Of a stretch of 64,000 nt of DNA, positions 4,008 to 47,547 are shown piece after piece. Below the pieces are notes generated by a model. It did not search any database, had not been told where the DNA came from, and saw nothing but the letters and a program-made list of their open reading frames with translations. Location: positions 682,001 to 746,000 of the forward strand of contig CAJIYP010000003.1 of the NCBI GenBank assembly GCA_905181705.1, written 5' to 3'. Made by a program: the position numbers and the translations under genes. Source of the DNA: Cryomorphaceae bacterium BACL29 MAG-121220-bin8 (GTDB lineage: Bacteria; Bacteroidota; Bacteroidia; Flavobacteriales; Flavobacteriaceae). Numbering within the stretch: position 1 is the first letter of the stretch; each line of letters begins with the position of its first letter.

Positions 4008-5165
4008 ATGAGTTCAAATAAAATGAAATTTAACACCAAGACAATCCATGGAGGGCAAATTCCTGAAAAAGGTTATGGGGCAGTAATGCCTCCAATATAT
4101 CAAACCTCTACATATTCTCAATCAAGCCCAGGGAAGCACTTAGGGTATGAATACAGCCGAACTCATAATCCCACTAGACATGCCCTAGAAAGCTCTTTAG
4201 CAAGTATCGAAAATGGAGTTTATGGACTAGCTTTTGGTTCTGGATTAGCTGCGATTGATGCGGTTTTAAAACTGTTAAGTCCAGGTGACGAAGTAATCTC
4301 AACCAATGATTTGTACGGGGGTTCTTACAGATTATTTACAAAAATATTTGAAAATTTTGGAATTAAATTTCACTTTACCGGAATGAATGATCCTGTATCA
4401 GTTGAAAAGTTAATTAATGTAAATACTAAAATGATTTGGGTGGAAACTCCTACTAACCCAATGATGAATGTTATAGACATAAGTTCTTTAAGTAAAATTG
4501 CAAAATCAAGAAAAATTCTATTATCAGTTGACAATACATTTGCTACCCCTTTTTTACAACAACCTTTAAACTTAGGAGCTGATATTGTAATGCATTCAGC
4601 AACAAAATACCTTGCGGGACATAGTGATGTTGTTTTAGGAGCTCTGGTAGTTAATAATAAAGATTTAGCTGATAAACTTTATTTTATTCAAAATGCAAGT
4701 GGAGCGATTTGTGGTCCTATGGATAGTTTTTTAACATTAAGAGGTATAAAAACATTACACGTAAGAATGGAGAGGCATTGTCAAAATGCGAAAAAAATTG
4801 CTGTTTTTTTAAATAATCATAATGGAATTGAAAAAGTTTTTTGGCCTGGGTTTGAGACTCACCCAAATCACGTAATTGCTAAAAAACAAATGTCAAATTT
4901 TGGGGCCATGATATCCTTTACAACCAAAGGGAATGATTTTAATAAGGCAATTCAAATCATTGAAAAACTCAAAATATTCACCTTAGCAGAATCGCTGGGC
5001 GGGGTAGAAAGTCTTGCTGGCCACCCTGCGTCGATGACGCATGCTTCAATTCCTAAAAAAGATCGGGAGGCTTCTGGTGTTGTCGACTCTTTAATAAGAC
5101 TTAGTGTCGGAATTGAAGACTCTGAAGACCTGATTTCAGATCTTAAACAAGCTATAGATATTTAA
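4008..5165 (+). CDS. Cys/Met metabolism PLP-dependent enzyme (cystathionine gamma-synthase or gamma-lyase)
   Basis: The 385-residue protein belongs to the trans-sulfuration family of PLP enzymes. K200 in HSATKYLAGHSD is the PLP lysine; YEYSRTHNPTR (residues 47-57) and ETPTNPMM are the family substrate and cofactor motifs; SLGGVESLAGHPASMTH is the C-terminal signature. Cystathionine gamma-synthase (MetB) and gamma-lyase cannot be told apart by these motifs. The gene stands alone, with a good promoter box upstream and a palindrome before the next gene. Confidence 0.9.
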   Translation: MSSNKMKFNTKTIHGGQIPEKGYGAVMPPIYQTSTYSQSSPGKHLGYEYSRTHNPTRHALESSLASIENGVYGLAFGSGLAAIDAVLKLLSPGDEVISTNDLYGGSYRLFTKIFENFGIKFHFTGMNDPVSVEKLINVNTKMIWVETPTNPMMNVIDISSLSKIAKSRKILLSVDNTFATPFLQQPLNLGADIVMHSATKYLAGHSDVVLGALVVNNKDLADKLYFIQNASGAICGPMDSFLTLRGIKTLHVRMERHCQNAKKIAVFLNNHNGIEKVFWPGFETHPNHVIAKKQMSNFGAMISFTTKGNDFNKAIQIIEKLKIFTLAESLGGVESLAGHPASMTHASIPKKDREASGVVDSLIRLSVGIEDSEDLISDLKQAIDI

Positions 5166-5174
5166 AAAATGATT

Positions 5175-5194
5175 TAAGTTAATTGATTAACTTA
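5175..5194. promoter_or_regulatory. Perfect palindrome upstream of gdhA
   Basis: Nine bases either side of a TG centre are exact reverse complements (TAAGTTAAT / ATTAACTTA). The element lies 9 bases after the metB-like stop and 41 bases before the gdhA ATG. It could be a regulator-binding dyad for gdhA or a weak AU-rich terminator; the T-run expected of a terminator is poor. Confidence 0.4.
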
Positions 5195-5235
5195 GAGTTA
5201 TTATTTTAATGGTTTTTTACTAAAATTATTTCATT

Positions 5236-6576
5236 ATGAAAAAAAGTATTGAAGATTTTATAACAGAAATAGGTGAAAGAAACTCTCAAGAACCTGAATT
5301 CATGCAAGCAGTAAGGGAAGTTTCCGAAACGGTAATACCCTATATTGTCTCTAATAAAATTTACCACGGAAAAAACATATTAATGCGTATGGTGGAACCC
5401 GAAAGAGTCCTAATGTTTAGAGTTAATTGGGTTGATGACAGTGGTGAAATTCGCGTTAACAGAGGATACAGAGTTCAAATGAATTCCGCTATAGGCCCTT
5501 ACAAAGGAGGGTTACGTTTTCATCCTTCGGTGAATTTAAGCATCCTTAAATTCTTGGCTTTTGAACAAGTTTTCAAAAATAGTCTAACAACCCTTCCAAT
5601 GGGAGGTGGTAAAGGTGGGTCTGATTTTGATCCAAAAGGAAAAAGTGATGGAGAAATTATGAGGTTTTGTCAAAGCTTTATGACTGAGCTTTTTAGATAT
5701 ATTGGCCCAAATACGGATATTCCTGCAGGAGATATTGGAGTTGGGGGAAGAGAAATTGGGTATATGTTTGGACAATATAAAAAATTAAAAAAAGAATTTA
5801 CAGGGGTATTAACAGGTAAAGGATTATCGTGGGGAGGGTCTTTGATTAGACCTGAAGCAACTGGATATGGAACGGTATATTTTGCTGAAAACATGTTAAA
5901 TCATGTAAAAAATTCTGTAAAAGGCAAAACGGTTGTTATTTCTGGCTCTGGTAATGTTGCGCAATTTGCTGCTGAAAAGTGTATTCAACTTTCTGCAAAA
6001 GTAGTCTCCTTATCTGACTCTTCTGGATCAATATATGATTCTGAAGGAATAACAGAAGAAAAACTTAAATACGTTATGGATTTAAAGAATAATAAAAGGG
6101 AAAGAATATCCGAGTATGTTAAAAAGTATCCTAAGGCTAAGTTTTATAAAAACCAAACACCTTGGGATATTCCTTGTGAAATTGCTTTACCATGCGCTAC
6201 GCAAAATGAACTTAACGAGAAAAACGCGAAAAGTTTAATTAATAACGGATGCGTCTGTATTAGTGAAGGGGCTAATATGCCTTGCACTCCAGAAGCAATT
6301 TCTGTTTTTAGAAAAAACAAAGTCTTGTATGCCCCTGGGAAAGCTTCAAATGCCGGAGGAGTTGCTGTATCTGGCTTAGAAATGGCTCAAAATTCATTAA
6401 GATACAGTTGGACAAGAGAAGAGGTTGACAGTAGGCTAAAAGACATAATGTTAGATATTCACAATGCTTGTATTACACATGGACTGGAGGAAGGATATAT
6501 AAATTATGAAAAAGGAGCTAATATTGCTGGGTTCATAAAAGTTGCAGATGCTATGCTGGCTCAAGGCGTGGTTTAG
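5236..6576 (+). CDS. gdhA: NADP-type glutamate dehydrogenase
   Basis: GdhA makes glutamate from 2-oxoglutarate and ammonium, normally with NADPH. The 446-residue hexameric-type enzyme shows GPYKGGLRFHPS (K90 binds substrate) and PMGGGKGGSDFDPKGKSD (K126 is catalytic), followed by a Rossmann domain with VISGSGNVAQFA. Length and motifs are those of the bacterial small-subunit enzyme. NADP preference is inferred from overall similarity to biosynthetic GDHs. The palindrome upstream could serve nitrogen-dependent control. Confidence 0.95.
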   Translation: MKKSIEDFITEIGERNSQEPEFMQAVREVSETVIPYIVSNKIYHGKNILMRMVEPERVLMFRVNWVDDSGEIRVNRGYRVQMNSAIGPYKGGLRFHPSVNLSILKFLAFEQVFKNSLTTLPMGGGKGGSDFDPKGKSDGEIMRFCQSFMTELFRYIGPNTDIPAGDIGVGGREIGYMFGQYKKLKKEFTGVLTGKGLSWGGSLIRPEATGYGTVYFAENMLNHVKNSVKGKTVVISGSGNVAQFAAEKCIQLSAKVVSLSDSSGSIYDSEGITEEKLKYVMDLKNNKRERISEYVKKYPKAKFYKNQTPWDIPCEIALPCATQNELNEKNAKSLINNGCVCISEGANMPCTPEAISVFRKNKVLYAPGKASNAGGVAVSGLEMAQNSLRYSWTREEVDSRLKDIMLDIHNACITHGLEEGYINYEKGANIAGFIKVADAMLAQGVV

Positions 6577-6599
6577 TTTTATTTAATTATAACTTCAAA

Positions 6600-7325
6600 A
6601 TGCTAATATCAACTGAAGCCATTGCTTTAAGTTCAATCAAATATTCAGAAAGCAGTATTATAATTAAATGTTTTACTCTTTCTGACGGGATAAAATCCTA
6701 TTTGATTAAAGGAATAAGATCTCAAAAAAAAAAATCTCTAAATATTGGTCTTTTTCAACCATTAACCATATTAGAAATTGATGCAAACCATAGAAATACT
6801 GGAAATTTAGAAAGTATTAGAGCTGCAAAAATAGTTTCCCCTTACAAGACAATTCCTTTTGATATAATTAAAAATACTATTGTTTTATTTTTATCTGAGG
6901 TTTTGTCTAAAAGCATCCAAGAGGAGGAAAAAAACGAGAATCTTTATGATTTTATTAAAAAATCTTTAATCTGGCTTGATTCTAGTGATAGTTATGTCAA
7001 TTTTCATATTCATTTTTTGATAAAATTTTTTAAATATTTAGGTATATCTCCAGATGAAAGTAATATACATTTGTCTTTTTTTGATATGATAAACGGAGCG
7101 TTTTGTGATTACTCAAAAAATGAAAATTATATTTCAGGATCTGTAATAAAACATTTTAAAGAATTTTTAGGCACAAATTTTGATGAGTTATGTGTTACAA
7201 TTGAATCTTCTTTACAAAGAAAAGAATTGTTAGAATTTTTAATAAAGTATATGCAAATACATTTAGAAGACTTTAGAAGGCCTCAATCACTTAATATCAT
7301 GTATGATCTTTTTAAAAAAAGGTAA
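6600..7325 (+). CDS. recO: DNA repair protein RecO
   Basis: RecO loads RecA onto SSB-coated DNA together with RecR. The 241-residue protein has the N-terminal OB-fold (YSESSIIIKCFTLSDG then KGIRSQKKKSLNIGLFQPL) and a helical C-terminus ending in FRRPQSLNIMYDL. The zinc-finger cysteines of some RecO proteins are absent, as in many Bacteroidota. The start is 23 bases after gdhA, and the 3' end overlaps the next gene by 23 bases. Confidence 0.88.
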   Translation: MLISTEAIALSSIKYSESSIIIKCFTLSDGIKSYLIKGIRSQKKKSLNIGLFQPLTILEIDANHRNTGNLESIRAAKIVSPYKTIPFDIIKNTIVLFLSEVLSKSIQEEEKNENLYDFIKKSLIWLDSSDSYVNFHIHFLIKFFKYLGISPDESNIHLSFFDMINGAFCDYSKNENYISGSVIKHFKEFLGTNFDELCVTIESSLQRKELLEFLIKYMQIHLEDFRRPQSLNIMYDLFKKR

Positions 7326-9804
7326 ATTTATTTTTGTTGTCTTTTTGATAATTTCTTTAAATACCTTTTCTCAAAAATTGGTTGTTAAGGACTTAAATGA
7401 GGGATTCATAATCCCTAATGTTACTATTTATAACACTAAAAAAACAACAACTATAATTTCTGATTTTAATGGCTATTTAAATCTTTCTGAGTTCAAAAAA
7501 AGTGATACCATAACTTTTAGTCACGTCGCATATGAAAAATTGCAAATCCAGGTAAATAAGATCTTGCAATCAGATAAAGATGTTTATGACGTTTACTTAA
7601 ATCCTAGTACTCAAACACTGTCTGAAATTATTTTATCTGTAGGAAGAAACAGAGGAAGTAAAGAAAAAATTTCCAAAAAAGTTTCTTTAATAACAGCTAA
7701 AAAAACTGAGCTGGACTTACCCCAAACTTCTGCTGATTTATTGTATTATGGTGGAGGTGTTAGAATTCAAAAAAGTCAAGGTGGGGGAGGAAGCCCCGTT
7801 ATTAGAGGCTTTGAAGGCAATAGAGTTTTACTTGTTATAGACGGAGTAAGGATGAATAATGCGATTTATAGATCTGGACACCTTCAAAATGCTATTACGA
7901 TTGACCCCAACACATTAGAAAGAACTGAGGTTATCTTTGGGCCAGCGTCTGTAGGATATGGTTCAGATGCGTTAGGAGGAGTGGTTCATTTTTACACTCG
8001 AACACCTAAAATAAATAATGAAAAAAAATGGATTGTGATGGGTTCTAATTCTCTCAACACTATTTTAAATCATAATATAAATAATTTAAACCTCGAGCAT
8101 AGCAAAGAAAATTGGGCAAGTTTCACGAGTTTTTCTTACTCTAACTTTGGTAATATAATAATGGGAAGAAATAGAACTCATGGGTTTGAAAATTGGGGAT
8201 TAAACAAACATTCTCTTATTAGCGAAAAAATTAATGAGGAAAATTTTATAAATAAAAATCCTACTGTTCAAAAAAACACAAACTATTCTCAATTTGATTT
8301 TTTACAAAAATTTAATATTAAAATTTCTGAATCATCAAATTTCGTGTTAAACTTACAACATTCTAAATCATCTAATATTGATCGTTATGATAAGTTAAGC
8401 GAATACAGCTCTAAAGAAAATCTGAAATATTCGCAATGGTACTATGGACCACAAAAAAGAACATTAATTTCATCTACTTATAATTTTATCGATGATAAAA
8501 TATGGTTAAAAAAAGGGTCTATAGTCGCTGCTTTTCAAAAAATTAAAGAATCCCGATACAACAGAAAGTTTCAATCACTTGTGCTAAATTCTCAAATAGA
8601 AAATGTAGATCTTTTTTCTTTAAATGCCGATTTTGTTGGAAATAAAACAGATATATCTTCTCTTTCTTATGGTTTTGAGTTCACTTATAACGATGTAAAT
8701 TCAGTTGCATTCGGGGAAAAACTTGTTAAAAATGACTTATTGCTTTTAAGTTCAAAAGACCCCAGTTCAATTTTTAAAATTCCTACAAGATATCCTAGTG
8801 AAGGCAGCAACTATAGTACTGCAGCATCCTATTATGAGTTTAGGAAAGATCTTTCTGAAAAATCTAATTTTAATTTTGGGATGAGATACAGTATAACATG
8901 GTTAAATGCGAACTGGGAAGAGGAAGCTTTAATAGATGCTAATTTAAGTTCTATACAAACAAAAAACTCTTCGTTAACTGGTAGCTTAGGTTACGTTACA
9001 AGATCAAAAAATAATTGGCAAATAAATGCTAATTTTTCTAGCGGATTTAGATCTCCAAATATTGATGATATGGGGAAAATTCGAGAAAACAGAGGAGTGC
9101 TTTCTGTCCCCAACAAACAACTAAAACCAGAATATGCTTATAGTTCAGATTTAGGTCTTACTAAGTTTTTTAACAATAAGCTTAACATTTTATCTCTCAA
9201 TCTATTTTACACGCATATTACAAACCATATTATTAGAGATTATTTTGAAATTTTAAATGATAAGTCAACCGAAAATCCTCAAACAATTCTTTACAATTTT
9301 GAAGAAGTCAAAACTATGGCAAATATTAATTCAGGTAGAGCTTATATTTATGGATTCTCATTTGATTCCGAGGCTGAAATTTCGAAAAAGCTTTCTTTTA
9401 AAAGTAACATAACCTATACTAAAGGAGGTAGTGTTCAAAACCCATATCCATTACCCTCGATATCTCCTGTTTTTGGTTCTTTTTATTTAAAATGGATACA
9501 TTCTAGAACAAAATTGCAATTCTCATATAAGTTTTCCAGAAGTAAAAAACCAAAAGATTATAGTATGGGTGGTGAAGATGGATTAGAAGAGACTCCTTTA
9601 ATAGGTTATAGCGATGGGATCGCTCAATACTACGGAATGCCTTCTTGGGGAGTTGTAAAGTTCTCATCTTCTTATAAATTTTCAGATAATTTAAAGGCGA
9701 CATTAATTTTTGATAATTTGTTTGATGTACATTACAGAGAGTTCGCGTCAGGAATATCTTCGCCTGGCAGAAATTTAAATATTGTTTTAGAACATAAGTT
9801 TTAA
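7303..9804 (+). CDS. TonB-dependent outer membrane receptor with CarboxypepD-like N-terminal domain
   Basis: The 833-residue receptor has a signal peptide (KFIFVVFLIISLNTFS), a carboxypeptidase-regulatory-like domain (about residues 25-105), a plug (GGGVRIQKSQGGGGSPVIRG, then VIDGVRMNNAIYR) and a beta-barrel ending in an aromatic-rich strand with a C-terminal F. The barrel most resembles heme/siderophore-type receptors of the CirA or HmuR kind, including the FDNLFDVHYREFASG ending, but the ligand is not determined. It starts inside recO, so it is probably co-transcribed or translationally coupled. Confidence 0.88.
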   Translation: MIFLKKGKFIFVVFLIISLNTFSQKLVVKDLNEGFIIPNVTIYNTKKTTTIISDFNGYLNLSEFKKSDTITFSHVAYEKLQIQVNKILQSDKDVYDVYLNPSTQTLSEIILSVGRNRGSKEKISKKVSLITAKKTELDLPQTSADLLYYGGGVRIQKSQGGGGSPVIRGFEGNRVLLVIDGVRMNNAIYRSGHLQNAITIDPNTLERTEVIFGPASVGYGSDALGGVVHFYTRTPKINNEKKWIVMGSNSLNTILNHNINNLNLEHSKENWASFTSFSYSNFGNIIMGRNRTHGFENWGLNKHSLISEKINEENFINKNPTVQKNTNYSQFDFLQKFNIKISESSNFVLNLQHSKSSNIDRYDKLSEYSSKENLKYSQWYYGPQKRTLISSTYNFIDDKIWLKKGSIVAAFQKIKESRYNRKFQSLVLNSQIENVDLFSLNADFVGNKTDISSLSYGFEFTYNDVNSVAFGEKLVKNDLLLLSSKDPSSIFKIPTRYPSEGSNYSTAASYYEFRKDLSEKSNFNFGMRYSITWLNANWEEEALIDANLSSIQTKNSSLTGSLGYVTRSKNNWQINANFSSGFRSPNIDDMGKIRENRGVLSVPNKQLKPEYAYSSDLGLTKFFNNKLNILSLNLFYTHITNHIIRDYFEILNDKSTENPQTILYNFEEVKTMANINSGRAYIYGFSFDSEAEISKKLSFKSNITYTKGGSVQNPYPLPSISPVFGSFYLKWIHSRTKLQFSYKFSRSKKPKDYSMGGEDGLEETPLIGYSDGIAQYYGMPSWGVVKFSSSYKFSDNLKATLIFDNLFDVHYREFASGISSPGRNLNIVLEHKF

Positions 9805-9825
9805 AAAAATTTCATCTAAAATGGT

Positions 9826-9833
9826 TACTTTCG
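9826..9833 (+). promoter_or_regulatory. -7-like box TACTTTCG upstream of ileS
   Basis: It differs from TAnnTTTG at one position and lies 28 bases before the ileS ATG. No clear -33 TTG was found, so support is weak. Confidence 0.35.
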
Positions 9834-9861
9834 CTTTTTATCAAAATTTCATTTTATCAAA

Positions 9862-12800
9862 ATGGCTTTTAAGGAATACAAAGGATTAGAACTTTCAAAA
9901 ATTGCTAAAGAAATTTTAAAAGATTGGGATTCCAATCAATCGTTTGAAAAAAGCATTAGCCTTAGAGATGGTGCTCCTAAGTTTGTTTTTTATGAAGGGC
10001 CTCCATCTGCAAATGGAATGCCTGGCATCCATCATGTAATGGCAAGAAGTATTAAAGATATTTTTTGTAGATATAAAACATTAAAAGGGTTTCAGGTAGA
10101 CAGAAAAGCTGGTTGGGATACTCATGGTTTGCCTATAGAACTGAGTGTTGAAAAAGAACTGGGTATTTCTAAATTAGATATTGGTAAGTCAATAACTGTT
10201 GAAGATTATAACACTGCTTGTAAGAAAGCTGTTATGCGCTACACTGATGTTTGGAACGATTTGACAAAAAAAATGGGCTATTGGGTGGATATGCAGAACC
10301 CATATGTAACCTATAAACCTAAATATATAGAGACAGTATGGTGGTTATTGAAAAATCTTTTTGATAAAGGTCTAATTTATAAAGGCTATACAATACAGCC
10401 ATATTCACCAAAAGCAGGAACTGGATTAAGCTCTCATGAATTAAACCAACCGGGCACATATCAAGATGTAACAGACACCACGGTTACTGCTCAATTTGAA
10501 GCAATAAAAAGCACTTTGCCTAGTTCAATACTACAGCGTGGTTCCGTTTATTTTTTAGCTTGGACAACTACACCTTGGACTCTCCCATCGAATACCGCAT
10601 TAACTATTGGACCTAAAATTAAATACACTATAGTTTCTAGTTTTAATCAGTATACTAACAAACCAATTAATGTGATTCTAGCAAAAGATCTAGTTTCAAA
10701 AGTATTTTCAGGAAGTTTTATTGAAGTTGAAAATGAAGACGAATTAAGGTTATATACAAAGTTAAAAACCAAAATACCTTACTTAATTAAAGAAACTATT
10801 ATTGGAAAAGAATTAATTGGAGTTAAGTATAAACAGCTTTGGAGTGGAGCTCCCCTTCCTTATCAAAATGCAGAAAATGCATTTAGAATAATAGGTGGAG
10901 ATTTCGTAACTACAGAAGATGGAACTGGTATTGTTCATACAGCTCCTACTTTTGGTGCTGACGATGCTAAAGTCGCAAAAGAAGCAATCCCCGAAGTTCC
11001 TCCAATGCTAATTTATGATGAAAACCAACAGCTTGTTCCGCTAGTTGATTTACAAGGTAAGTTTAGGCCTGAGTTAGGGAAATTAGGCGGTAAATATGTG
11101 AAAAATGAATATTATAATAATCCAAATGAAATTCCTGATAGATCTGTAGATGTAGAAATTGCCATTCAATTAAAGGAAGAGAATAAAGCATTTAAGGTTG
11201 AAAAATACTTACATAGTTATCCCAACTGTTGGAGAACTGACAAGCCTATTTTATATTATCCTTTGGATTCATGGTTTATTAAAGTAACTCAAAAAAGAGA
11301 GCTTTTAACTAAGCTAAACGAGTCTATAAACTGGAAGCCCAAATCAACAGGGGATGGAAGATTTGGTAATTGGCTTTCTAATGCAAATGATTGGAATCTC
11401 TCTAGATCTAGGTTTTGGGGAATTCCTTTACCTATTTGGAGAACAGAAGATTCCAAAGAAACGATTATAATTGGTTCAGTTGAAGAGTTAAAAATTGAAA
11501 TTTCTAAGGCAATACATTTAGGTTTTATGGAAGAAGACCCTTTTGATTCTTTTGAAACAAATAACATGGAAGAGTCTAATTACAATAAGATTGATCTTCA
11601 TAAAAACATTGTTGATGAAATAATTTTATCTTCAAAAAATGGACAAAAAATGTATCGAGAGGCCGATTTGATAGATGTTTGGTTTGATTCTGGGTCTATG
11701 CCTTATGCGCAATGGCACTATCCCTTTGAAAATAAAGAGATGATTGATAGCAACATAGCGTTTCCTGCTGATTATATCGCTGAAGGAGTAGATCAAACTC
11801 GAGGATGGTTTTACACTTTACACGCTATTAGCTCACTGGTTTTTGGTTCTATCTCATATAAAAATGTAATTTCTAACGGACTTGTCTTAGATAAAAATGG
11901 GCAGAAAATGTCTAAAAGATTAGGAAATGCAGTGGATCCTTTTAAAACTATTGAAGATTTTGGACCCGATGCCACAAGGTGGTATATGATTAGCAATGCG
12001 AACCCTTGGGATAATTTGAAATTTGATTTATCTGGAATTGAAGAAAGTAAACGTAAATTTTTTGGAACACTTTACAATGTGTATTCATTTTTCACCCTTT
12101 ATGCCAATATTGACAAATTTGATTTTAGCGAAAAAGAATTAAATAATAGTGAAAAACCTGAACTAGATAGGTGGATAATTTCTGAACTTCACTCTTTAAT
12201 TAATGAAGTTGACGATCATTATTCAAAGTATGAACCAACAAAAGCAGCCAGATCTATTTCTAAATTTGTTCAGTTATACTTGAGTAACTGGTACGTTCGA
12301 CTTTCTAGAAGAAGGTTTTGGAAAGGGTCTTACGAAAAAGATAAAATAAGCGCATACCAAACCTTGTTTACATGTCTAATAGAAATTGCGAAAATCTCCT
12401 CTCCAATAGCTCCTTTTTTTATGGACCGCTTATATTGTGATTTGATTTCTAATACAAATTTTAATTCCTTTGAATCTGTTCACCACACTAACTTTCCAAT
12501 TTCAAAAAGTGAACTAATAGATGTTGAATTACAAAAGAAAATAAGAAAAGCTCAAATAATTTGCTCCTTAATTTTATCATTAAGGAAAAAAGAAAAAATT
12601 AAAGTTCGTCAACCTCTTTCAAAAATAATGATACCTTACTCTAATTTGAATGAAAAGCTTGAACTTGAAGAAGTCTCTGAACTGATAAAATCAGAAGTTA
12701 ATGTAAAAGAAATTGAATTAATCAGCAATTCTTCTGGAATTTTGGTAAAAAAAGTGAAGCCTAATTTCAAAAGCTTAGGGCCTAAACTCGGAAAACTTTT

Positions 12801-13269
12801 GTCTACAGTAAATTTACAAATAAAAGGTTTTGGTGATAATGAAATTAAAAAAATAGAAAAAGGTGAGTCTATTTCAATTAATGTTGATTCTAATAAGATA
12901 ATTCTTGAAGCCCAAGATTTAGAGGTGGTTTCTGAGGATATTCAAGGATGGCTAGTGGCCTCTGAAAACAATATTACTGTAGCTTTAGACGTTATGTTAA
13001 ATGAAGGCTTAAAAAACGAAGGAATCGCTAGAGAACTAGTGAACAGAATTCAAAATCATAGAAAAGAAATTGGATTATTAGTGACTGATAAAATTATTTT
13101 AAAAATTCAGAAGGATAATATAATTGAAAAAGCTATTTTTGAGAATAGAGACTACATTGTAAACGAAACTTTAGCTGATGATTTAATTTTAGAAAGTTCT
13201 ATAAAAAAAGGAATTGAAATTAAATTTGATAATGTTGACACAAAACTAAGTATACATAAAAATAATTAA
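9862..13269 (+). CDS. ileS: Isoleucyl-tRNA synthetase, GIHH-motif type
   Basis: IleRS charges tRNA-Ile in the cytoplasm. The 1135-residue protein has the class I catalytic core, with the signature region PPSANGMPGIHHVMAR where the usual HIGH reads GIHH (G55-I56-H57-H58). It also has the CP1 editing domain, with WTTTPWTLPSNTAL, the second catalytic motif KMSKR (682-686) and a long C-terminal domain without the zinc finger of IleRS type 1. Length, the KMSKR form and the C-terminus point to the eukaryote-like type 2. The exchanged motif is discussed under findings. Genes for a DksA-like protein and LspA follow, a frequent order in Bacteroidota. Confidence 0.96.
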   Translation: MAFKEYKGLELSKIAKEILKDWDSNQSFEKSISLRDGAPKFVFYEGPPSANGMPGIHHVMARSIKDIFCRYKTLKGFQVDRKAGWDTHGLPIELSVEKELGISKLDIGKSITVEDYNTACKKAVMRYTDVWNDLTKKMGYWVDMQNPYVTYKPKYIETVWWLLKNLFDKGLIYKGYTIQPYSPKAGTGLSSHELNQPGTYQDVTDTTVTAQFEAIKSTLPSSILQRGSVYFLAWTTTPWTLPSNTALTIGPKIKYTIVSSFNQYTNKPINVILAKDLVSKVFSGSFIEVENEDELRLYTKLKTKIPYLIKETIIGKELIGVKYKQLWSGAPLPYQNAENAFRIIGGDFVTTEDGTGIVHTAPTFGADDAKVAKEAIPEVPPMLIYDENQQLVPLVDLQGKFRPELGKLGGKYVKNEYYNNPNEIPDRSVDVEIAIQLKEENKAFKVEKYLHSYPNCWRTDKPILYYPLDSWFIKVTQKRELLTKLNESINWKPKSTGDGRFGNWLSNANDWNLSRSRFWGIPLPIWRTEDSKETIIIGSVEELKIEISKAIHLGFMEEDPFDSFETNNMEESNYNKIDLHKNIVDEIILSSKNGQKMYREADLIDVWFDSGSMPYAQWHYPFENKEMIDSNIAFPADYIAEGVDQTRGWFYTLHAISSLVFGSISYKNVISNGLVLDKNGQKMSKRLGNAVDPFKTIEDFGPDATRWYMISNANPWDNLKFDLSGIEESKRKFFGTLYNVYSFFTLYANIDKFDFSEKELNNSEKPELDRWIISELHSLINEVDDHYSKYEPTKAARSISKFVQLYLSNWYVRLSRRRFWKGSYEKDKISAYQTLFTCLIEIAKISSPIAPFFMDRLYCDLISNTNFNSFESVHHTNFPISKSELIDVELQKKIRKAQIICSLILSLRKKEKIKVRQPLSKIMIPYSNLNEKLELEEVSELIKSEVNVKEIELISNSSGILVKKVKPNFKSLGPKLGKLLSTVNLQIKGFGDNEIKKIEKGESISINVDSNKIILEAQDLEVVSEDIQGWLVASENNITVALDVMLNEGLKNEGIARELVNRIQNHRKEIGLLVTDKIILKIQKDNIIEKAIFENRDYIVNETLADDLILESSIKKGIEIKFDNVDTKLSIHKNN

Positions 13270-13271
13270 TC

Positions 13272-13646
13272 ATGGCGAATTCACGTTATTCTGATAAAGA
13301 TTTAAAATATTTCAAAAATTTAATTGAAGGAAAAATAAAGAAAGCTCAAAACGATCTTGCTTTAATTAAAAGTGCTTACATGAACGATGGAAATAATGGA
13401 ACAGAAGATACTTCTCCTACTTTCAAGGCGTTTGAAGAAGGCTCTCAAACCATGTCAAAAGAAGCAAATACTCAGCTTGCTATCAGACAAGAAAAGTTTA
13501 TTAGAGACTTAAAAAGTGCTCTTATTAGAATTGAAAACAAAACTTATGGAGTTTGTCGAGAGACCAGTAAGTTGATAAACAAAAAAAGACTAGAGTTAGT
13601 CCCTCATGCAACTTTAAGTATTGAGGCAAAAAACAAAATGTCTTAA
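13272..13646 (+). CDS. TraR/DksA-family protein lacking the C4 zinc finger
   Basis: The 124-residue protein has the DksA-type layout: a coiled-coil hairpin (about residues 8-90, with the acidic NDGNNGTEDTSPTFKAFEEG at the tip) followed by YGVCRETSKLINKKRL and VPHATLSIEAK. Only one cysteine of the usual four remains, so it cannot form the standard zinc finger; this agrees with other Bacteroidota homologs. DksA-type proteins bind the secondary channel of RNA polymerase. It begins two bases after ileS and precedes lspA by 27 bases. Confidence 0.88.
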   Translation: MANSRYSDKDLKYFKNLIEGKIKKAQNDLALIKSAYMNDGNNGTEDTSPTFKAFEEGSQTMSKEANTQLAIRQEKFIRDLKSALIRIENKTYGVCRETSKLINKKRLELVPHATLSIEAKNKMS

Positions 13647-13673
13647 AATTTATATTTACTTTCTTTTTTAGTT

Positions 13674-14297
13674 ATGAGTTTTAACAAGTCTATTTTAATT
13701 ATATTTTTTATTCTATTAATAGATCAAATTTCTAAAATTTATATTAAGGTTAATTTTCCCTTAACCCTTTATGGATCTGATGCTTTAGTGGATTTAGGTT
13801 GGTTTAAAATGTTATTTGTTGAAAATAAAGGAATGGCATGGGGAGCAAAAATAAGTGACTTCATCCCCTTTATCAGTGAAAGATTAGGAAAGCTAATTTT
13901 AACTTTGGTAAGAATTGCAGCAGTACCCTTAATTTTTTACTGGCTAAATGAATCCATTAAAAAAAGAGAAAGTAAACTTTTAATTATTAGCATTTCTTTG
14001 GTTCTGGCTGGAGCTTTAGGAAATTTAATTGATTCTATTTTTTATGGATACCTTTTTACCGATAGTTACCTCAATATTGCTTCATTTAGTCCTGGTAATG
14101 GATACGAATCCTTTCTTTACGGACACGTAGTCGACATGCTTCAATTTCCAATGTTTACTTGGGAATGGCCAAATTGGTTGCCATATATAGGTGGAGAAAG
14201 TTTTACTTTTTTTGAACCAGTCTTTAATATTGCTGATACAGCCATTAGTACTGGAGTTGGTATTATGTTGGTTTTTAATAAAAGAATTTTTCCCTAA
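13674..14297 (+). CDS. lspA: Lipoprotein signal peptidase
   Basis: LspA is the inner-membrane aspartic protease that removes signal peptides from prolipoproteins. The 207-residue protein has four hydrophobic segments and the catalytic aspartates D120 in GALGNLIDS and D188 in FNIADTA, with GHVVDM (D153) between. It is slightly longer than the E. coli enzyme because of an insert near residues 130-180, usual for Bacteroidota. Several predicted lipoproteins in this window (M23 lipoprotein, DUF4292, SprE) would be its substrates. Its 3' end overlaps the convergent cyclo-ligase gene by four bases. Confidence 0.94.
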   Translation: MSFNKSILIIFFILLIDQISKIYIKVNFPLTLYGSDALVDLGWFKMLFVENKGMAWGAKISDFIPFISERLGKLILTLVRIAAVPLIFYWLNESIKKRESKLLIISISLVLAGALGNLIDSIFYGYLFTDSYLNIASFSPGNGYESFLYGHVVDMLQFPMFTWEWPNWLPYIGGESFTFFEPVFNIADTAISTGVGIMLVFNKRIFP

Positions 14298-14857
14298 AAA
14301 TTATAGATTTTTGTTGGAGTAATACAATAGTCCATTTTAATATCATTTATAGTTATATCTTCAATTTTTTCAATTGGGTCAAAAAATGACAAACCTATTT
14401 TAAGAGTTTCAATTGGGCACTTTTTTAGAAGCATATCGTAATATCCTCCACCATATCCAACTCTGTGACCAGTTGAGTCGAAACAAAGCAAAGGAATAAA
14501 TATCACCTCAATTTCATTTTCGTTTACATTAATCCCCGAATGAGGTTCAGAGATACCTAGTTCATTTATTTTTAATAAAGTTGCGTCAGTAAGAAGGAAG
14601 TTGGTTATGATTTTATTTTTGAAATCTGTCTTAGGCAAAACTACATTCTTGTCCTTTCCTTGAATAATTTGAATAATTAATTTCGTGTCTATTTCATTTT
14701 TTTTTTCAATCGGGAAAAAAATATGATAATTGCTATGATTCCAAATATTCATATTTAAGGATCTATTAGCAATTTGAAGACTTAATTCTTCACTATCTTG
14801 TTCACTCAAAGAATTTCTTTTACTTTTAAAAACCAATCTTAGATCTTCCTTTAGCAC
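14294..14857 (-). CDS. 5-formyltetrahydrofolate cyclo-ligase
   Basis: This enzyme converts 5-formyl-THF to 5,10-methenyl-THF using ATP. The 187-residue protein has the C-terminal signature GHRVGYGGGYYD near residues 130-141, which binds ATP, and a basic N-terminus (FKSKRNSLS). The start codon is GTG at 14857-14855, and its first base is also the last base of the upstream TAG, which suggests translational coupling to the DUF3784 gene. Confidence 0.9.
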   Translation of the reverse strand: MLKEDLRLVFKSKRNSLSEQDSEELSLQIANRSLNMNIWNHSNYHIFFPIEKKNEIDTKLIIQIIQGKDKNVVLPKTDFKNKIITNFLLTDATLLKINELGISEPHSGINVNENEIEVIFIPLLCFDSTGHRVGYGGGYYDMLLKKCPIETLKIGLSFFDPIEKIEDITINDIKMDYCITPTKIYNF

Positions 14858-15183
14858 TATTTCTTTATTTTAAATTTATTACCCTTGTAAATAATATAAG
14901 GCATTGGTAGAAGAACTGAAATAAAATATGCAATAGATGCTGTAGATTCATCAAAAACTATATAAAACATTAAAAAAATTAATGAAGAATATATTGCAAG
15001 GTTTATAAAAAACTTTTTAAAAAAAATAAGATAATTTTTTAAATCAAAAGACTCTTTCTCCTTTTTAGACATAGTATTATAACCAGCTAATAACATGTCT
15101 GCATTATTTTCATTTGTTAGATACGCAGCTCCAATAAAACAAATATTTGTTATAACTATTGCAATAAACATTTCAGTTTCCAT
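14857..15183 (-). CDS. DUF3784-like membrane protein
   Basis: The protein is 108 residues from the ATG at 15183; a longer reading to 15288 would invade uvrC and is not favoured. An N-terminal helix is followed by NADMLLAGYNTMSKKEKE, the characteristic DUF3784 signature, and then two more predicted membrane helices. The function of DUF3784 is unknown. It is divergent from uvrC, with 42 bases between, and is joined to the cyclo-ligase gene. Confidence 0.75.
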   Translation of the reverse strand: METEMFIAIVITNICFIGAAYLTNENNADMLLAGYNTMSKKEKESFDLKNYLIFFKKFFINLAIYSSLIFLMFYIVFDESTASIAYFISVLLPMPYIIYKGNKFKIKK

Positions 15184-15225
15184 AGATTTATTAGGTGTAA
15201 ATTTAAAAATAATTATTTTAGCAAA

Positions 15226-17058
15226 GTGAGTAAAACTACCCAGAACCCAGAATTCTCTACGCTTCCTAATCTTCCTGGTGTATATCAATTTTTTAATGAT
15301 TCAAATAAAATCATCTATATAGGTAAGGCTAAAAATTTAAAAAAAAGAGTTAGTTCTTATTTTCAAAAGAACATAGGTTCTCAAAAGACAAAAAATCTTG
15401 TAAAAAACATAGCAGACATTAAACATGTTGTTGTTTCTTCTGAATCTGATGCGCTTTTATTAGAAAACTCTCTTATTAAAAAATACCAACCAAAATACAA
15501 TATCTTGTTGAGAGATGACAAAACATATCCATGGATATGCATTAAAAACGAAAGATTTCCCAGAGTTATGTTTACAAGAAAACTGATAAAAGATGGATCT
15601 GAATATTATGGCCCATACACCAATTATAAAACCATTAACATTTTACTTGATTTAATCAATAATCTATATCCACTAAGAATTAGCAATTATAATCTTTCTG
15701 AAAAACAAATTAATTCTAAAAACGAAAAACTATCCCTTAGGATTTTGAAAAAGGCTGGAAATACTATCATTCTTGGTTTTCAAATGGGAAAATCTATAAA
15801 TTCAAGTGAGGCTTTAATTTCAGAAAAAGAATACGATTATAATATTAATTCCGTCAAACAAATACTAAAGGGAAAGTTTTCTCCATCCAAAGAGCTATTA
15901 AAGAAAAAAATGCTAGAACATTCTGAAAATATGGATTTTGAATATGCTCAAAAAATTAAAGAAAAAATGGAGCTTTTAGTTAACTATCAGTTCAAATCGA
16001 CAGTGGTTAGCTCTAAACTAAATAACATTGATGTTTTTAGTATTCTTTCAGACCCAACTCATGCCTATGTAAATTATCTTCAAGTTGCTTATGGTCGTAT
16101 AGTAAGATTCCATAACGTAGAAATTAAAAAAAAATTAGATGAAACGGATAGTGATCTTTTGTTAATGTGTATTGTAGATTTAAGAAACAAGTTTGATTCA
16201 AAAAACAAAACAATTATAAGTCCATTTGAATACAACGGATTAATACCTGCAAAGTTTATTATTCCAAAATCAGGAGATAATAAAAAACTTCTTGAACTTT
16301 CAAAAAAAAATATTTCATATTTTAAAATAGAAAAATTAAAAAAAATTCAAATTGTTGACCCTGAGAGACATGCAAAAAGAATTTTAGATCAAATGAAGAA
16401 GGATTTAAGACTTAAAACAAATCCAGTTCATATTGAGTGTTTTGATAATTCAAATATTCAAGGTTCAAACCCAGTGGCAGCTTGCGTTGTATTTATAAAT
16501 GGTAAGCCAGCAAAAAAGGAATACAGGCATTATAATATTAAAACAGTGGAAGGGCCTGATGATTATGCCTCTATGGAAGAAGTTGTTTTCAGAAGATATA
16601 AAAGAATGATTGAGGAAGAAAAAAAGTTGCCAAGCGTAATTATTATTGACGGAGGAAAAGGACAACTAAGCTCTAGTGTATCCGCTTTAAAAAAATTAAA
16701 TTTACACAACAAAATCCTTGCGTTAGGCATTGCAAAAAGACTAGAAGAAATATTTTATCCCTCAGATCCAATTCCCCTATACCTTGATAAAAGATCCGAA
16801 ACATTAAGGGTAATACAGCACATGAGGAATGAAGCACATCGCTTTGCGATTACTTTTCATAGAAATAAAAGAAGCGGACAAGCATTAAATTCTTCTCTTG
16901 ACTCCATCACTGGAATTGGAGAAAAAACAAAAATCGCACTTTTAAAAAAATATAAATCATTAAAAAAAATAAGAGAAACTCCAAAAGAATTAATAGTAGC
17001 AGATATAGGCGTTTCTAAAACAGAAAAATTAATGTCTTTTTTAAATTCATCCAAATAG
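15226..17058 (+). CDS. uvrC: Excinuclease ABC subunit C
   Basis: UvrC makes both incisions in nucleotide excision repair. The 610-residue protein has an N-terminal GIY-YIG nuclease domain (LPGVYQFF then IIYIGKAKNLKKR, about residues 13-95), a UVR motif for UvrB binding (about 200-240), the RNase H-like nuclease domain (ECFDNSNIQG, then VVFINGKPAKKEYRHYNI) and C-terminal helix-hairpin-helix motifs (SITGIGEKT). The start is GTG at 15226; a TATTTTAG box at 15214-15221 just ahead suggests a nearly leaderless transcript. Confidence 0.96.
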   Translation: MSKTTQNPEFSTLPNLPGVYQFFNDSNKIIYIGKAKNLKKRVSSYFQKNIGSQKTKNLVKNIADIKHVVVSSESDALLLENSLIKKYQPKYNILLRDDKTYPWICIKNERFPRVMFTRKLIKDGSEYYGPYTNYKTINILLDLINNLYPLRISNYNLSEKQINSKNEKLSLRILKKAGNTIILGFQMGKSINSSEALISEKEYDYNINSVKQILKGKFSPSKELLKKKMLEHSENMDFEYAQKIKEKMELLVNYQFKSTVVSSKLNNIDVFSILSDPTHAYVNYLQVAYGRIVRFHNVEIKKKLDETDSDLLLMCIVDLRNKFDSKNKTIISPFEYNGLIPAKFIIPKSGDNKKLLELSKKNISYFKIEKLKKIQIVDPERHAKRILDQMKKDLRLKTNPVHIECFDNSNIQGSNPVAACVVFINGKPAKKEYRHYNIKTVEGPDDYASMEEVVFRRYKRMIEEEKKLPSVIIIDGGKGQLSSSVSALKKLNLHNKILALGIAKRLEEIFYPSDPIPLYLDKRSETLRVIQHMRNEAHRFAITFHRNKRSGQALNSSLDSITGIGEKTKIALLKKYKSLKKIRETPKELIVADIGVSKTEKLMSFLNSSK

Positions 17059-17065
17059 TATTTTA

Positions 17066-17073
17066 TATTTTTG
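17066..17073 (+). promoter_or_regulatory. -7 box TATTTTTG five bases before the DUF3108 gene
   Basis: An exact TAnnTTTG match ends five bases before the ATG at 17079, the same spacing as at yicC. Transcription would then start at or beside the start codon. Confidence 0.45.
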
Positions 17074-17078
17074 CAGCT

Positions 17079-17894
17079 ATGCGAATAAAATTTTTGTTGG
17101 TTTGTAGCTTTTTTTGCCTTTCCAATTTAATGTCCAGTCAAAGTATTGTAGGTAGTAGCTTGCCATTTGTGAAAACCTCTTCTAATTCTTTTAAAACTGG
17201 GGAGTTCATGAAGTTCAGGCTACATTATGGAATTTTTAATGCTAGTTACGCTACTCTCGACTTACAAAAAAGTTCGATAAATTCTCAAGAAGTTTATAAA
17301 GCTGTCGCCATAGGAAGAACTACAGGAATTGCTAGGTTATTTTTTAAAGTAGAAGATCGTTATGAAACCTATTTTAGTAAAACCCTTGTTCGCCCATTAA
17401 AATCAACACGAAACATCAATGAGGGAGGGTACACAAAAAACGTAGAAATTGACTACGATTATAACATTAAAGAAGCGATTGTAAACGATATTAAAAATAA
17501 AGAAACTAATAGAGTTTCTATTGAAGAAAATGTTCAGGATTTAATTTCAACTTTTTATTATTTGAGAAATCATTTTGATGTAAAAAAATTAAAAATTGAT
17601 GATTTTATTAGAATAACTATTTTTTTTGATGCTGAAAACTATAACTTTAAAATGAAGTTTTTAGGTTATGAGGATATAAAAACAAAATTTGGCGTAATTA
17701 ATTGTTTAAAATTTAGACCTTTCATTGAGTCTGGCAGGGTTTTTAAAGATAGCGAAAGTCTTTCCCTTTGGGTAAGTAACGATGACAATAAAATTCCAAT
17801 AAAAATAGAAGCTGGATTAAGAATTGGTTCCATTGAGGCAGATTTAGAAGAGTTTAAAGGACTTAAACATCCGTTTAAAATTAAAGTACAATGA
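17079..17894 (+). CDS. DUF3108 domain protein, exported
   Basis: The 271-residue protein has a signal peptide (FLLVCSFFCLSNLMSSQS) and a DUF3108 domain: FKTGEFMKFRLHYGIFNASYA near residue 38, VEDRYETYF near 95 and the C-terminal FKIKVQ. DUF3108 proteins are beta-rich envelope proteins of unknown function. Its last four bases overlap the start of the M23 lipoprotein gene, and the pair is conserved in Flavobacteriia, so an envelope role alongside peptidoglycan processing is plausible. Confidence 0.82.
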   Translation: MRIKFLLVCSFFCLSNLMSSQSIVGSSLPFVKTSSNSFKTGEFMKFRLHYGIFNASYATLDLQKSSINSQEVYKAVAIGRTTGIARLFFKVEDRYETYFSKTLVRPLKSTRNINEGGYTKNVEIDYDYNIKEAIVNDIKNKETNRVSIEENVQDLISTFYYLRNHFDVKKLKIDDFIRITIFFDAENYNFKMKFLGYEDIKTKFGVINCLKFRPFIESGRVFKDSESLSLWVSNDDNKIPIKIEAGLRIGSIEADLEEFKGLKHPFKIKVQ

Positions 17895-19138
17895 ATAGGT
17901 TTTACATAATTATAAGTTTTATTATTATTATTATTTCTTGTGAAAAAACTCCCAAAGCTGAAACTCCTATTATAATTAAAGAAAAAATAATAAAGCAGTT
18001 TGGTTATACCCTAAATGATTTTGATGTGGTAAAAGATACAGTAAAAAATGGCGATTCTTTTGGAACAATTTTAGAAAAAAATAATTTATTTTATCCTCAA
18101 ATTTATAATATAGTTCAAAAGGCAAAACAAGTTTACGATGTAAGAAAAATAAATATTGGTAAGCCCTACACTATTCTCTTTTCTAAAGATAGTTTAAGAA
18201 CTCCTCAAGTATTTGTATATCAGCCAAATTTAATTGATTATGTAATCGTTTCTTTGACAGATTCTTTGTGGGCTGAAAAAAAATCTAAAGCAGTTAAATT
18301 AATTGAGTTTGAAGCGGAAGGCATAATTACTAGTTCACTTTCTGAGACAATGGAAGAAAAAAAATTATCTCCATTATTATCAAATGAATTATCAGAAATA
18401 TATGCTTGGACTATTGACTTTTTTAGACTTGAGAAAGGGGATAACTTTAAAGTAATTTATTCCGGAAAATATGTGGATGATTCTATATATGTCGGATTAA
18501 ATAGAATTCATTCTGCTTATTTTGAACATAGAAAAAAACCTTTTTATGCTATTGAGTTTGAAACGGATTCGAAAAGAGGAATATTCGAGTATTTTGACGA
18601 AAAAGGGAAAAATTTAAGAAGGGCTTTTCTAAGAAGTCCCGTACAGTTCAGTAGAATTTCCTCTAGATATAATCTAAAAAGAAAAATAGCATATTACGGA
18701 AGAGTTCGTCCTCATCTAGGGACAGATTTTGCCGCTCCCGTTGGTACTGAGATTAGAGCTACCGCAAGCGGAACTGTTGTTAAAGCAGGATATACCAGAG
18801 GAAACGGAAATTATATAACTATAAAACATAACTCGACTTACTCAACTCAATACCTACACATGAAAAAAAGAGGTGTTAAAAAGGGACAATTTGTAAAACA
18901 AGGAGATTATATAGGTAGTGTGGGGATGACAGGCAATACATCTGGACCACATGTATGCTATAGGTTTTGGAAAAACGGAAAACAGGTAGATCCATTACGC
19001 CAAAAACTTCCTGAGGCTAAGCCAATTTCTAAAGATTTAAAAGATAAATACTTAACTTACATGAAACCTATTAAACAACAGCTGGATTCTATAGGCTCTA
19101 ATGTTAAGGTTTTAGATAATTCGATAGCTAACAACTAA
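17891..19138 (+). CDS. M23-family peptidoglycan endopeptidase lipoprotein (HVC variant)
   Basis: The 415-residue protein has a lipoprotein signal with C17 in IIIISC. A LysM-like or OapA-like middle domain (about residues 35-125) follows, then a LytM/M23 domain. Zinc ligands H275 and D279 are in RPHLGTD. The second motif is GPHVCYRF, so the usual HxH reads H354-V-C356: the catalytic histidine is kept and the third zinc ligand is a cysteine. Other flavobacterial copies seem to share this form. It probably cleaves peptidoglycan crosslinks at the envelope. Confidence 0.88.
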   Translation: MNRFYIIISFIIIIISCEKTPKAETPIIIKEKIIKQFGYTLNDFDVVKDTVKNGDSFGTILEKNNLFYPQIYNIVQKAKQVYDVRKINIGKPYTILFSKDSLRTPQVFVYQPNLIDYVIVSLTDSLWAEKKSKAVKLIEFEAEGIITSSLSETMEEKKLSPLLSNELSEIYAWTIDFFRLEKGDNFKVIYSGKYVDDSIYVGLNRIHSAYFEHRKKPFYAIEFETDSKRGIFEYFDEKGKNLRRAFLRSPVQFSRISSRYNLKRKIAYYGRVRPHLGTDFAAPVGTEIRATASGTVVKAGYTRGNGNYITIKHNSTYSTQYLHMKKRGVKKGQFVKQGDYIGSVGMTGNTSGPHVCYRFWKNGKQVDPLRQKLPEAKPISKDLKDKYLTYMKPIKQQLDSIGSNVKVLDNSIANN

Positions 19139-45887: not shown

Positions 45888-46590
45888 CTAAGCCTTGAAA
45901 TAAGCTTCTAGTTCCTTTAAAGTTTCTGGACTAGTGTTGCATGTCTTTAATTATTTTTCCTTTTTCAAGAAGAACAATTCTCTCGCATACTTCTGTTACA
46001 TCTTGAATGTCATGGCTGGAAACAAGAATAGTTGTTTTTTTATTTTTAGATAAATCCTTTAAAATTTGCTTCAACCTAATTTGGGTAGAAGGGTCTAAGT
46101 TTGCAAAAGGCTCGTCTAAAATAACGACTTTAGGCTCTCCTAAAAGGGCTGCTACGACTCCTGCCTTTTTTTGATTTCCTTTTGAAAGGTCTCTCAAGTA
46201 TTTTTTCCCACCTAATATCTCTCCGTGAAAAAAATCTTCAAATTGATTAACAAATTCATCTACCTCTTTTTTCTTTAATCCCCTTAGTTCTCCGATGAAA
46301 TAAAAGTACTCTTCTGGCATTAAGATAACCAATTAAAAAAGTGTCGTCTAGAAATGCTGCTGTAAAAGCTTTCCAGCCCTCACTTCTCCATTACGTCGAT
46401 CTCCATTATTGATCACCCTTCCTGTAGTGGGCTTTTATAAGGTCTACAAAGGCAGCTGAACATGGTTGTTTTTCCCGCTCCGTTATTTCCTACTAAGGCC
46501 AAAAGTTTGACCTTCTGGAATGTCTAGGGTTGTTATGTCTAAAACCGTTTGCTTGGAATATTTTTTTGAAATATTTTTTAAAGAGATCAT
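45888..46590 (-). pseudogene. ABC transporter ATP-binding protein gene broken by several single-base indels
   Basis: Reading across frames from the ATG at 46590 gives an ABC ATPase of about 230 residues that pairs with the DUF5687 permease. Visible parts are MISLKNISKKYSKQ, the Walker A GNNGAGKTT, AFTAAFLDDTFLIGY, the signature LRDLSKGNQKKAG, Walker B VVILDEPFANLDP and the end SPETLKELEAYFKA. Shifts are needed near 46500, 46460, 46435, 46405, 46395, 46321 and 45940; most are one extra base. Codons between shifts are intact, so damage is very recent or is sequencing error. Confidence 0.8.
45931..46332 (-). CDS. C-terminal fragment of the broken ABC ATPase
   Basis: This is the longest uninterrupted piece (133 residues), with the ABC signature motif, Walker B and the H-loop (ILVSSHDIQDV). 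It lacks Walker A and cannot be an active ATPase on its own. Confidence 0.6.
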   Translation of the reverse strand: MVILMPEEYFYFIGELRGLKKKEVDEFVNQFEDFFHGEILGGKKYLRDLSKGNQKKAGVVAALLGEPKVVILDEPFANLDPSTQIRLKQILKDLSKNKKTTILVSSHDIQDVTEVCERIVLLEKGKIIKDMQH

Positions 46591-46709
46591 AAAATTAATT
46601 TTGTTTATATGCTTTTAAAGTAGAATACTTTTCTGATTTATATGCTTTTATAATAAGGTTAAAAACTGGCTCCTTTAATAAAATTCCTAAATCCCTGTAG
46701 CCCCAACCA

Positions 46710-47249
46710 TCAAACATCCAATTGAAAATGAATAGAAATAATTTCCTCTAGCCGAACAAGGCTATAGGGAAGAACCATTTGAGGAAGGCTAATTAAAACT
46801 GTTTTCATGTTAATGGCTTTTTTCCCTCCAAATGCCATTTTACTTGAGTCTAAATCAACTGGTGTTTTGGTGTAAGCTCCTGCCCAAAGTGTTAGGTACC
46901 CATTCACACCAATATTGTAGAGCCCACCGGCCAATACTGCAAAAATAGCTTCAGTTCCTAAAAACGAGTAAATAAAACAAGCCAAAACGGTAGAGATAAT
47001 TGTACCGATAACAACTAGGGTCCACTTTGATTTTATGTATTCTTTGTATTCAATATTTTGACACATCATAAGAGAATAATACTGACTGTCCCAGCTTGGC
47101 ACGAAAGATCCAAACATAAACAAGAACCCCCCTGAGGCAAATAAATAACCAAAGAAAGTCATCGAGGCTAATAAATAACCAGTCGAACTAAATAAATCCT
47201 CTTGGGAAATAAAAAAGGAAACCATAAAACAAGAAAAAAATACCTGCAT
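46710..47249 (-). CDS. C-terminal fragment of the DUF5687 permease
   Basis: This 179-residue piece contains about five membrane helices. The frame change into it lies near 47220, within the overlap with the middle fragment, and it loses frame again near 46710, short of the true C-terminus. Confidence 0.5.
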   Translation of the reverse strand: MQVFFSCFMVSFFISQEDLFSSTGYLLASMTFFGYLFASGGFLFMFGSFVPSWDSQYYSLMMCQNIEYKEYIKSKWTLVVIGTIISTVLACFIYSFLGTEAIFAVLAGGLYNIGVNGYLTLWAGAYTKTPVDLDSSKMAFGGKKAINMKTVLISLPQMVLPYSLVRLEEIISIHFQLDV

Positions 47250-47523
47250 AAACAGTGCTTCTTGCTCTTTTAGACCTTTTAATTAATCTTAAATCGTTTT
47301 TTAAAAAAACAGCTGTTTTCCCAAACCTATCAAGCCAAGAAAAATCTTCCATTTTAGCCTCGTCTGTTTTCTTTTTTAAACCAGTATCTATGTAAAGTCC
47401 ATTTTTAAAATATTTAAATACATAAAAATAAAGCCATACTAAAAATATCCAGGGCAATACTGAGTAAATAGGATTAGTATAAAAAGAATAGAAAAAAGTC
47501 TGCGGAATAAACAGTAAAATCAA
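47188..47523 (-). CDS. Middle fragment of the DUF5687 permease
   Basis: This 111-residue piece holds the loop KKKTDEAKMEDFSWLDRFG, typical of DUF5687 proteins, between two membrane helices. Both ends are frame breaks. Confidence 0.5.
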   Translation of the reverse strand: MILLFIPQTFFYSFYTNPIYSVLPWIFLVWLYFYVFKYFKNGLYIDTGLKKKTDEAKMEDFSWLDRFGKTAVFLKNDLRLIKRSKRARSTVYAGIFFLFYGFLFYFPRGFI

Positions 47524-47547
47524 AAATAGAATAATACTCTAATATTT

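What the first reader, a model, noticed from the sequence alone, without database searches (positions are those of the whole stretch)
10024..10035. Isoleucyl-tRNA synthetase with an exchanged catalytic motif, GIHH instead of HIGH
Codons 55-58 read G-I-H-H where class I synthetases have H-I-G-H. The flanks (PPSANGMP before, VMAR after) and the second motif KMSKR at 682-686 are intact, so this is not a frame or alignment artefact. As I recall the literature, type 2 IleRS proteins with first and third residues of HxGH exchanged (GxHH) were reported as extremely resistant to the antibiotic mupirocin. This gene looks like the cell's only IleRS in view and has a type 2 layout, so the lineage may be naturally hyper-resistant.
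Basis: partly seen in the sequence, partly recalled or inferred. Interest (0 to 1): 0.72.

Follow-up and report, generated by a model that had tools for sequence, protein, structure and literature searches.

The report
Ordinary Bacteroidota isoleucyl-tRNA synthetase, swapped motif
This flavobacterium-like microbe charges its isoleucine tRNA with an enzyme of a known, mupirocin-tolerant type whose catalytic motif has two residues swapped; the swap is real, but the kind was described in 2023 and every relative whose gene was read has it too.

Summary
Bases 10024-10035 (GGC ATC CAT CAT) are codons 55-58 of an uninterrupted 1135-codon ileS (9862-13269, +) and read GIHH at the class I HXGH site. 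The enzyme is a type 2 IleRS: 763 bits to wild-type Priestia megaterium IleRS2 against 288 to its wild-type IleRS1, with the HYPFE signature and no cysteine in residues 940-1135. It is the only IleRS found in the 87%-complete genome. The trait is not special to this lineage: 226 of 226 IleRS loci read carry GIHH or GVHH, among them one from each of 118 genomes drawn across the phylum, and the fixed residues use every synonymous codon. So this is an ordinary, probably ancient housekeeping enzyme of a known kind. Mupirocin hyper-resistance of this enzyme is likely but was not measured. The phylum-wide uniformity is not stated in the parts of the two papers that I read, and is the only small addition.

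The parts
9862..13269 (+). ileS, type 2 isoleucyl-tRNA synthetase, 1135 aa
   Evidence: (TIGR00392, 946 bits, cut-off 621)
10024..10035 (+). GIHH: class I signature site with first and third residues exchanged (HXGH -> GXHH), codons 55-58
11905..11919 (+). KMSKR, second class I signature, codons 682-686
11716..11730 (+). HYPFE, eukaryote-like/type 2 signature, codons 619-623
   Evidence: motif defined in PMC4861432 section 21
10564..10971 (+). editing-domain motifs TTTPWT (codons 235-240) and GTGIVHTAPTFGADDAK (354-370), apparently intact
   Evidence: T235-T237, H359, D368 nearly invariant; their editing role is recalled, not from a call
12679..13260 (+). C-terminal DUF5915 domain (residues 940-1133); no cysteine in residues 940-1135
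   Evidence: type 2 SD3 lacks the zinc-binding motif (PMC10485003 legend)

Best explanation
The gene is the cell's housekeeping type 2 isoleucyl-tRNA synthetase. Its signature carries the naturally occurring GXHH form: the third-position His takes the catalytic place of the canonical first His when the adenylate is made, and it clashes with mupirocin, so the enzyme is expected to be active but only very weakly inhibited. The form is probably ancestral in the phylum. Shown here: the sequence, type 2 identity, a single copy as far as the assembly goes, and uniform conservation across the sample. Inferred from other enzymes: activity, mechanism, and a mupirocin Ki somewhere from tens of micromolar to several millimolar.
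For: Motif and alignment; type 2 by score and signatures; only one place over the TIGR00392 cut-off in the genome (the model also rang over its cut-off in 14 of 14 control genomes, among them E. coli and B. subtilis, whose enzymes I recall to be type 1); 226 of 226 loci G[IV]HH with synonymous codon variation. Published kinetics: natural ALHH D. radiodurans Ki 6600 uM with good kcat and an 823-fold drop on change to HVGH; GVHH T. thermophilus mutant 35 uM; GVHH P. megaterium mutant 460 uM. Published structures put the third His where the first His acts, and a model shows the clash with mupirocin.
Against: No Bacteroidota enzyme is measured in the text I read, and published Ki values of GXHH/AXHH enzymes span 35 uM to 6.6 mM, so the level for this protein is unknown. 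The genome is 87% complete, so a second ileS in the missing part is possible. Of the 12 relatives at least 90% complete, each shows one IleRS; in G011 it is in two pieces, and G019 has besides a 32-residue fragment on another contig. The weaker matches there look like ValRS and LeuRS by frame length and score but were not identified one by one.
Confidence: 0.93

Rival explanations
1. GXHH is kept in Bacteroidota for a reason other than mupirocin: an ancient neutral or catalytic alternative (for example linked to loss of tRNA-dependent pre-transfer editing, absent in the S. griseus type 2 enzyme), with hyper-resistance as a by-product.
For: Uniform in 226 of 226 loci, the phylum part spanning 118 genomes in 67 genera, with no sign of lineage-by-lineage gain; the S. 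griseus enzyme carries the motif and lacks pre-transfer editing (PMC4861432 abstract).
Against: A single enzyme is the only overlap between the two properties that I know of; the authors of PMC10485003 presume antibiotic pressure.
Confidence: 0.35
2. The motif is a sequencing or assembly error, or the gene is a decaying or inactive copy.
For: None for this gene; the window holds another gene region split over frames (45931-48087), so the assembly may carry some indel errors.
Against: 1135 codons without a stop, other class I and editing motifs intact, the same motif in 226 of 226 loci, and no other IleRS found in the genome.
Confidence: 0.01
3. A recently acquired resistance gene (MupA/MupB-like) standing in for, or beside, a housekeeping type 1 IleRS.
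For: MupA and MupB models match (689 and 715 bits).
Against: Both are far below their cut-off of 1900 bits, and TIGR00392 fits better; no second IleRS found; full-length homologues at 56-85% identity in the near genomes.
Confidence: 0.02

Closest known systems
G/AXHH type 2 IleRS (Brkic et al. 2023, PMC10485003: D. radiodurans ALHH, S. griseus)
   Same: Type 2 IleRS with the first and third signature residues exchanged and the KMSK motif kept.
   Different: Here GIHH with KMSKR; kinetics and inhibition not measured.
Priestia megaterium IleRS2 (8C8U/8C8V wild type, HVGH; 8C8W swap mutant, GVHH)
   Same: Best matches among solved structures: 8C8W 769 bits, 8C8U 763, 8C8V 761, 8C9D 756.
   Different: Wild type has the canonical HVGH; this protein is about 100 residues longer (1135 against 1032).
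MupA / MupB (mupirocin-resistant IleRS; MupA on staphylococcal plasmids)
   Same: Homologous IleRS (about 36% identity in the listed MupA records).
   Different: Here on a large contig as the only IleRS found; below the MupA/MupB cut-offs. Their signature motif was not read here.

Membership tests
Isoleucyl-tRNA synthetase | Over the curated TIGR00392 cut-off (621.4 bits) | tested here: met
   946.4 bits
Type 2 (eukaryote-like) IleRS | Closer to type 2 than to type 1 solved enzymes | tested here: met
   wild-type PmIleRS2 8C8U 762.6 and 8C8V 761.2 bits; wild-type PmIleRS1 8C9E 287.8, 1FFY 289.4 (1FFY as type 1 recalled)
Type 2 (eukaryote-like) IleRS | HYPFE motif | tested here: met
   residues 619-623; motif
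Type 2 (eukaryote-like) IleRS | C-terminal SD3 without the zinc-binding motif | tested here: met
   0 Cys in residues 940-1135; feature
Type 2 (eukaryote-like) IleRS | Placement in an IleRS tree | not tested
   no tree was built
G/AXHH IleRS2 | Gly or Ala at position 1 and His at position 3 of the class I signature, at the aligned site | tested here: met
   GIHH aligned to HVGH/GVHH of PmIleRS2
G/AXHH IleRS2 | Mupirocin Ki far above that of canonical IleRS2, activity retained | not testable with these tools
   needs purified enzyme
MupA/MupB resistance gene | Over the NCBIfam cut-off of 1900 bits | tested here: not met
   689.2 and 715.1 bits

The most novel reading that the evidence does not exclude
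GXHH is an ancestral, fixed state of the whole phylum Bacteroidota, so an entire major phylum is intrinsically hyper-resistant to mupirocin-type antibiotics at the target, and the swapped motif is a stable alternative class I active site kept for more than antibiotic escape (perhaps with altered pre-transfer editing).
Probability: 0.4. Interest if true: 0.35.

Novelty: new member of a known kind. Interest (0 to 1): 0.15.

Why it matters
It is one more natural example that the HIGH motif of class I synthetases can be altered, and its uniformity in the phylum sample suggests that the swap is old and stable rather than a recent answer to mupirocin. If the published kinetics carry over, mupirocin-like drugs should be expected to spare Bacteroidota at the target (an expectation, not measured). 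None of this changes the published picture in kind.

Tried and rejected
Sequencing error, frame artefact and misalignment were rejected. A second or type 1 IleRS in the genome was looked for and not found. A genome-wide oddity of class I enzymes was not supported: the LeuRS-like and ValRS-like genes read HVGH and HMGH (named from size and motif context, not scanned against families). As a control on the motif reading, three Bacillota relatives read GIHH (Acetoanaerobium, L241), HAGH (Sutcliffiella, L242) and HIGH (Paenibacillus, L243), so the method does see canonical motifs. In one search the script missed 1 of 226 loci (L204); one search showed GVHH there. In one search two loci (L034, L204) were left out of the 224-row protein alignment because their frames are interrupted, but were kept in the motif and codon counts. 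No tree, structure prediction or docking was run. Paper searches were 20 of 144 papers listed; 10 of 28; 10 of 11; no title or abstract start in these listings is about IleRS motifs in Bacteroidota. I opened two papers: PMC10485003 (abstract and outline, passages, part 1 of 3 of the Results, Discussion, data availability) and PMC4861432 (passages and section 21; a further term search found nothing). Their trees and supplements were not seen.

Full report
Observation. The ORF at 9862-13269 (+) has 1135 codons and no internal stop. Bases 10024-10035 are GGC ATC CAT CAT, codons 55-58, reading G-I-H-H in the context EGPPSANGMP-GIHH-VMAR. KMSKR lies at codons 682-686. The protein is ileS: TIGR00392 946 bits against a cut-off of 621, with tRNA-synt_1, Anticodon_1 and DUF5915 matches in Pfam.

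Type. The four best matches among solved structures are the Priestia megaterium IleRS2 entries 8C8W (swap mutant GVHH, 769 bits), 8C8U (wild type, 763), 8C8V (wild type, 761) and 8C9D (756); the P. megaterium IleRS1 entries 8C9F and 8C9E score 296 and 288 bits. In the alignment GIHH falls exactly on HVGH of 8C8U and GVHH of 8C8W. HYPFE, given as a signature of eukaryote-like IleRS in PMC4861432 section 21, is at codons 619-623, and residues 940-1135 hold no cysteine, in line with the type 2 domain that lacks the zinc-binding motif. I built no tree.

Copy number. The window lies in a genome of 1.84 Mb in 4 contigs, 87% complete. A search with the protein finds this gene plus weak matches in two other genes; a search with TIGR00392 finds 9 matches of which only this gene is over the cut-off, while the same model was over its cut-off in 14 of 14 control genomes. 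The two other genes look like ValRS and LeuRS and read HMGH and HVGH, so the exchange does not extend to them.

Relatives. I read IleRS motifs from 226 loci: 30 from a search of 31 near genomes, the window's own among them (1 of the 31, 62% complete, has no strong IleRS match), 80 named genome-contig loci (the best 80 of 577 relatives found, with mostly Flavobacteriaceae or flavobacterial titles), and 116 more which, with two already counted, give one for each of 118 genomes drawn across the phylum, in 67 genera. The sets may hold a species more than once. All 226 read GIHH or GVHH: 225 by one script (162 GIHH, 63 GVHH), and L204, GVHH, by another. The script did not require GXHH, so canonical motifs would have shown. 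Identities to the window protein go down to 42%. Gly is written with all four codons (GGC 63, GGA 75, GGG 21, GGT 67) and the two His with both codons (CAT/CAC 84/142 and 101/125), which I take as purifying selection on the residues. G55, H57 and H58 are among the 158 nearly invariant positions (99.5% or more) of the 224-row alignment. Three Bacillota relatives read GIHH, HAGH and HIGH, so both forms occur outside the phylum.

What is known. Brkic et al. 2023 (PMC10485003; abstract, passages, part 1 of 3 of the Results, Discussion, data availability) described this exchange: 86 G/AXHH against 77 HXGH IleRS2 in a set of 379 IleRS, gained at least twice, not seen in IleRS1. D. radiodurans IleRS2 (ALHH) has a mupirocin Ki of 6.6 mM and loses 823-fold of it on change to HVGH; T. 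thermophilus and P. megaterium IleRS2 given GVHH gain about 200-fold (about 430-fold for the latter in the Discussion). The structures place the third His where the first His acts, and the authors model a clash with mupirocin. 'bacteroid' and 'flavobacter' occur 0 times in that main text, and 'bacteroid' and 'flavobact' 0 times in PMC4861432, whose section 21 lists firmicutes, actinobacteria, chlamydiae, spirochaetes and deinococcales as bearers of type 2. The trees and supplements were not seen, so Bacteroidota may well be in them.

Mechanism and verdict. The most likely account is a housekeeping type 2 IleRS with the published alternative signature: active, with His57 doing the work of the usual first His, and poorly inhibited by mupirocin. 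Sequence, type, conservation and copy number are shown; activity and resistance are inferred. Since the state is uniform in the phylum sample, the suggestion of a special hyper-resistant lineage should be widened to the phylum and its surprise lowered. Whether antibiotic pressure or something else keeps the motif is open; the S. [quoted passage not shown]

Surroundings. The gene is followed by a DksA/TraR-like gene and a signal peptidase II gene (lspA). No tRNA gene was found in the window. The ORFs from 4008 to 19138 that I looked at show no mobile element to my eye; this was not searched for.

Noticed in passing
13272-13646: DksA/TraR-like protein just after ileS; the zinc-finger model matches at 22.8 bits, under its 24.9 cut-off, and the protein has a single cysteine (residue 95), so the usual four-cysteine zinc site is absent.
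   Followed up: partly
45931-48087 (-): An ABC-transporter-like region lies in several short frames, some overlapping (133, 179, 111 and 179 aa), which looks like frameshifts: either decaying genes or assembly indels.
   Followed up: partly
L034 (genome G011) and L204 (genome G096): The IleRS frame is interrupted in these two relatives (pieces of 405 and 747 aa; a stop after 124 codons of the fetched stretch), perhaps draft-assembly errors since the enzyme should be essential.
   Followed up: partly
11905-11919 and relatives: The second signature reads KMSKR in 132 of 225 loci examined, KMSKS in 84, KMSKT in 6, and was not found by the script in 3.
   Followed up: partly
L241 (NZ_CP154629.1): An Acetoanaerobium IleRS with GIHH lies on a 2.63 Mb record labelled a plasmid, which is of chromosome size, so the label may be wrong.
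   Followed up: no
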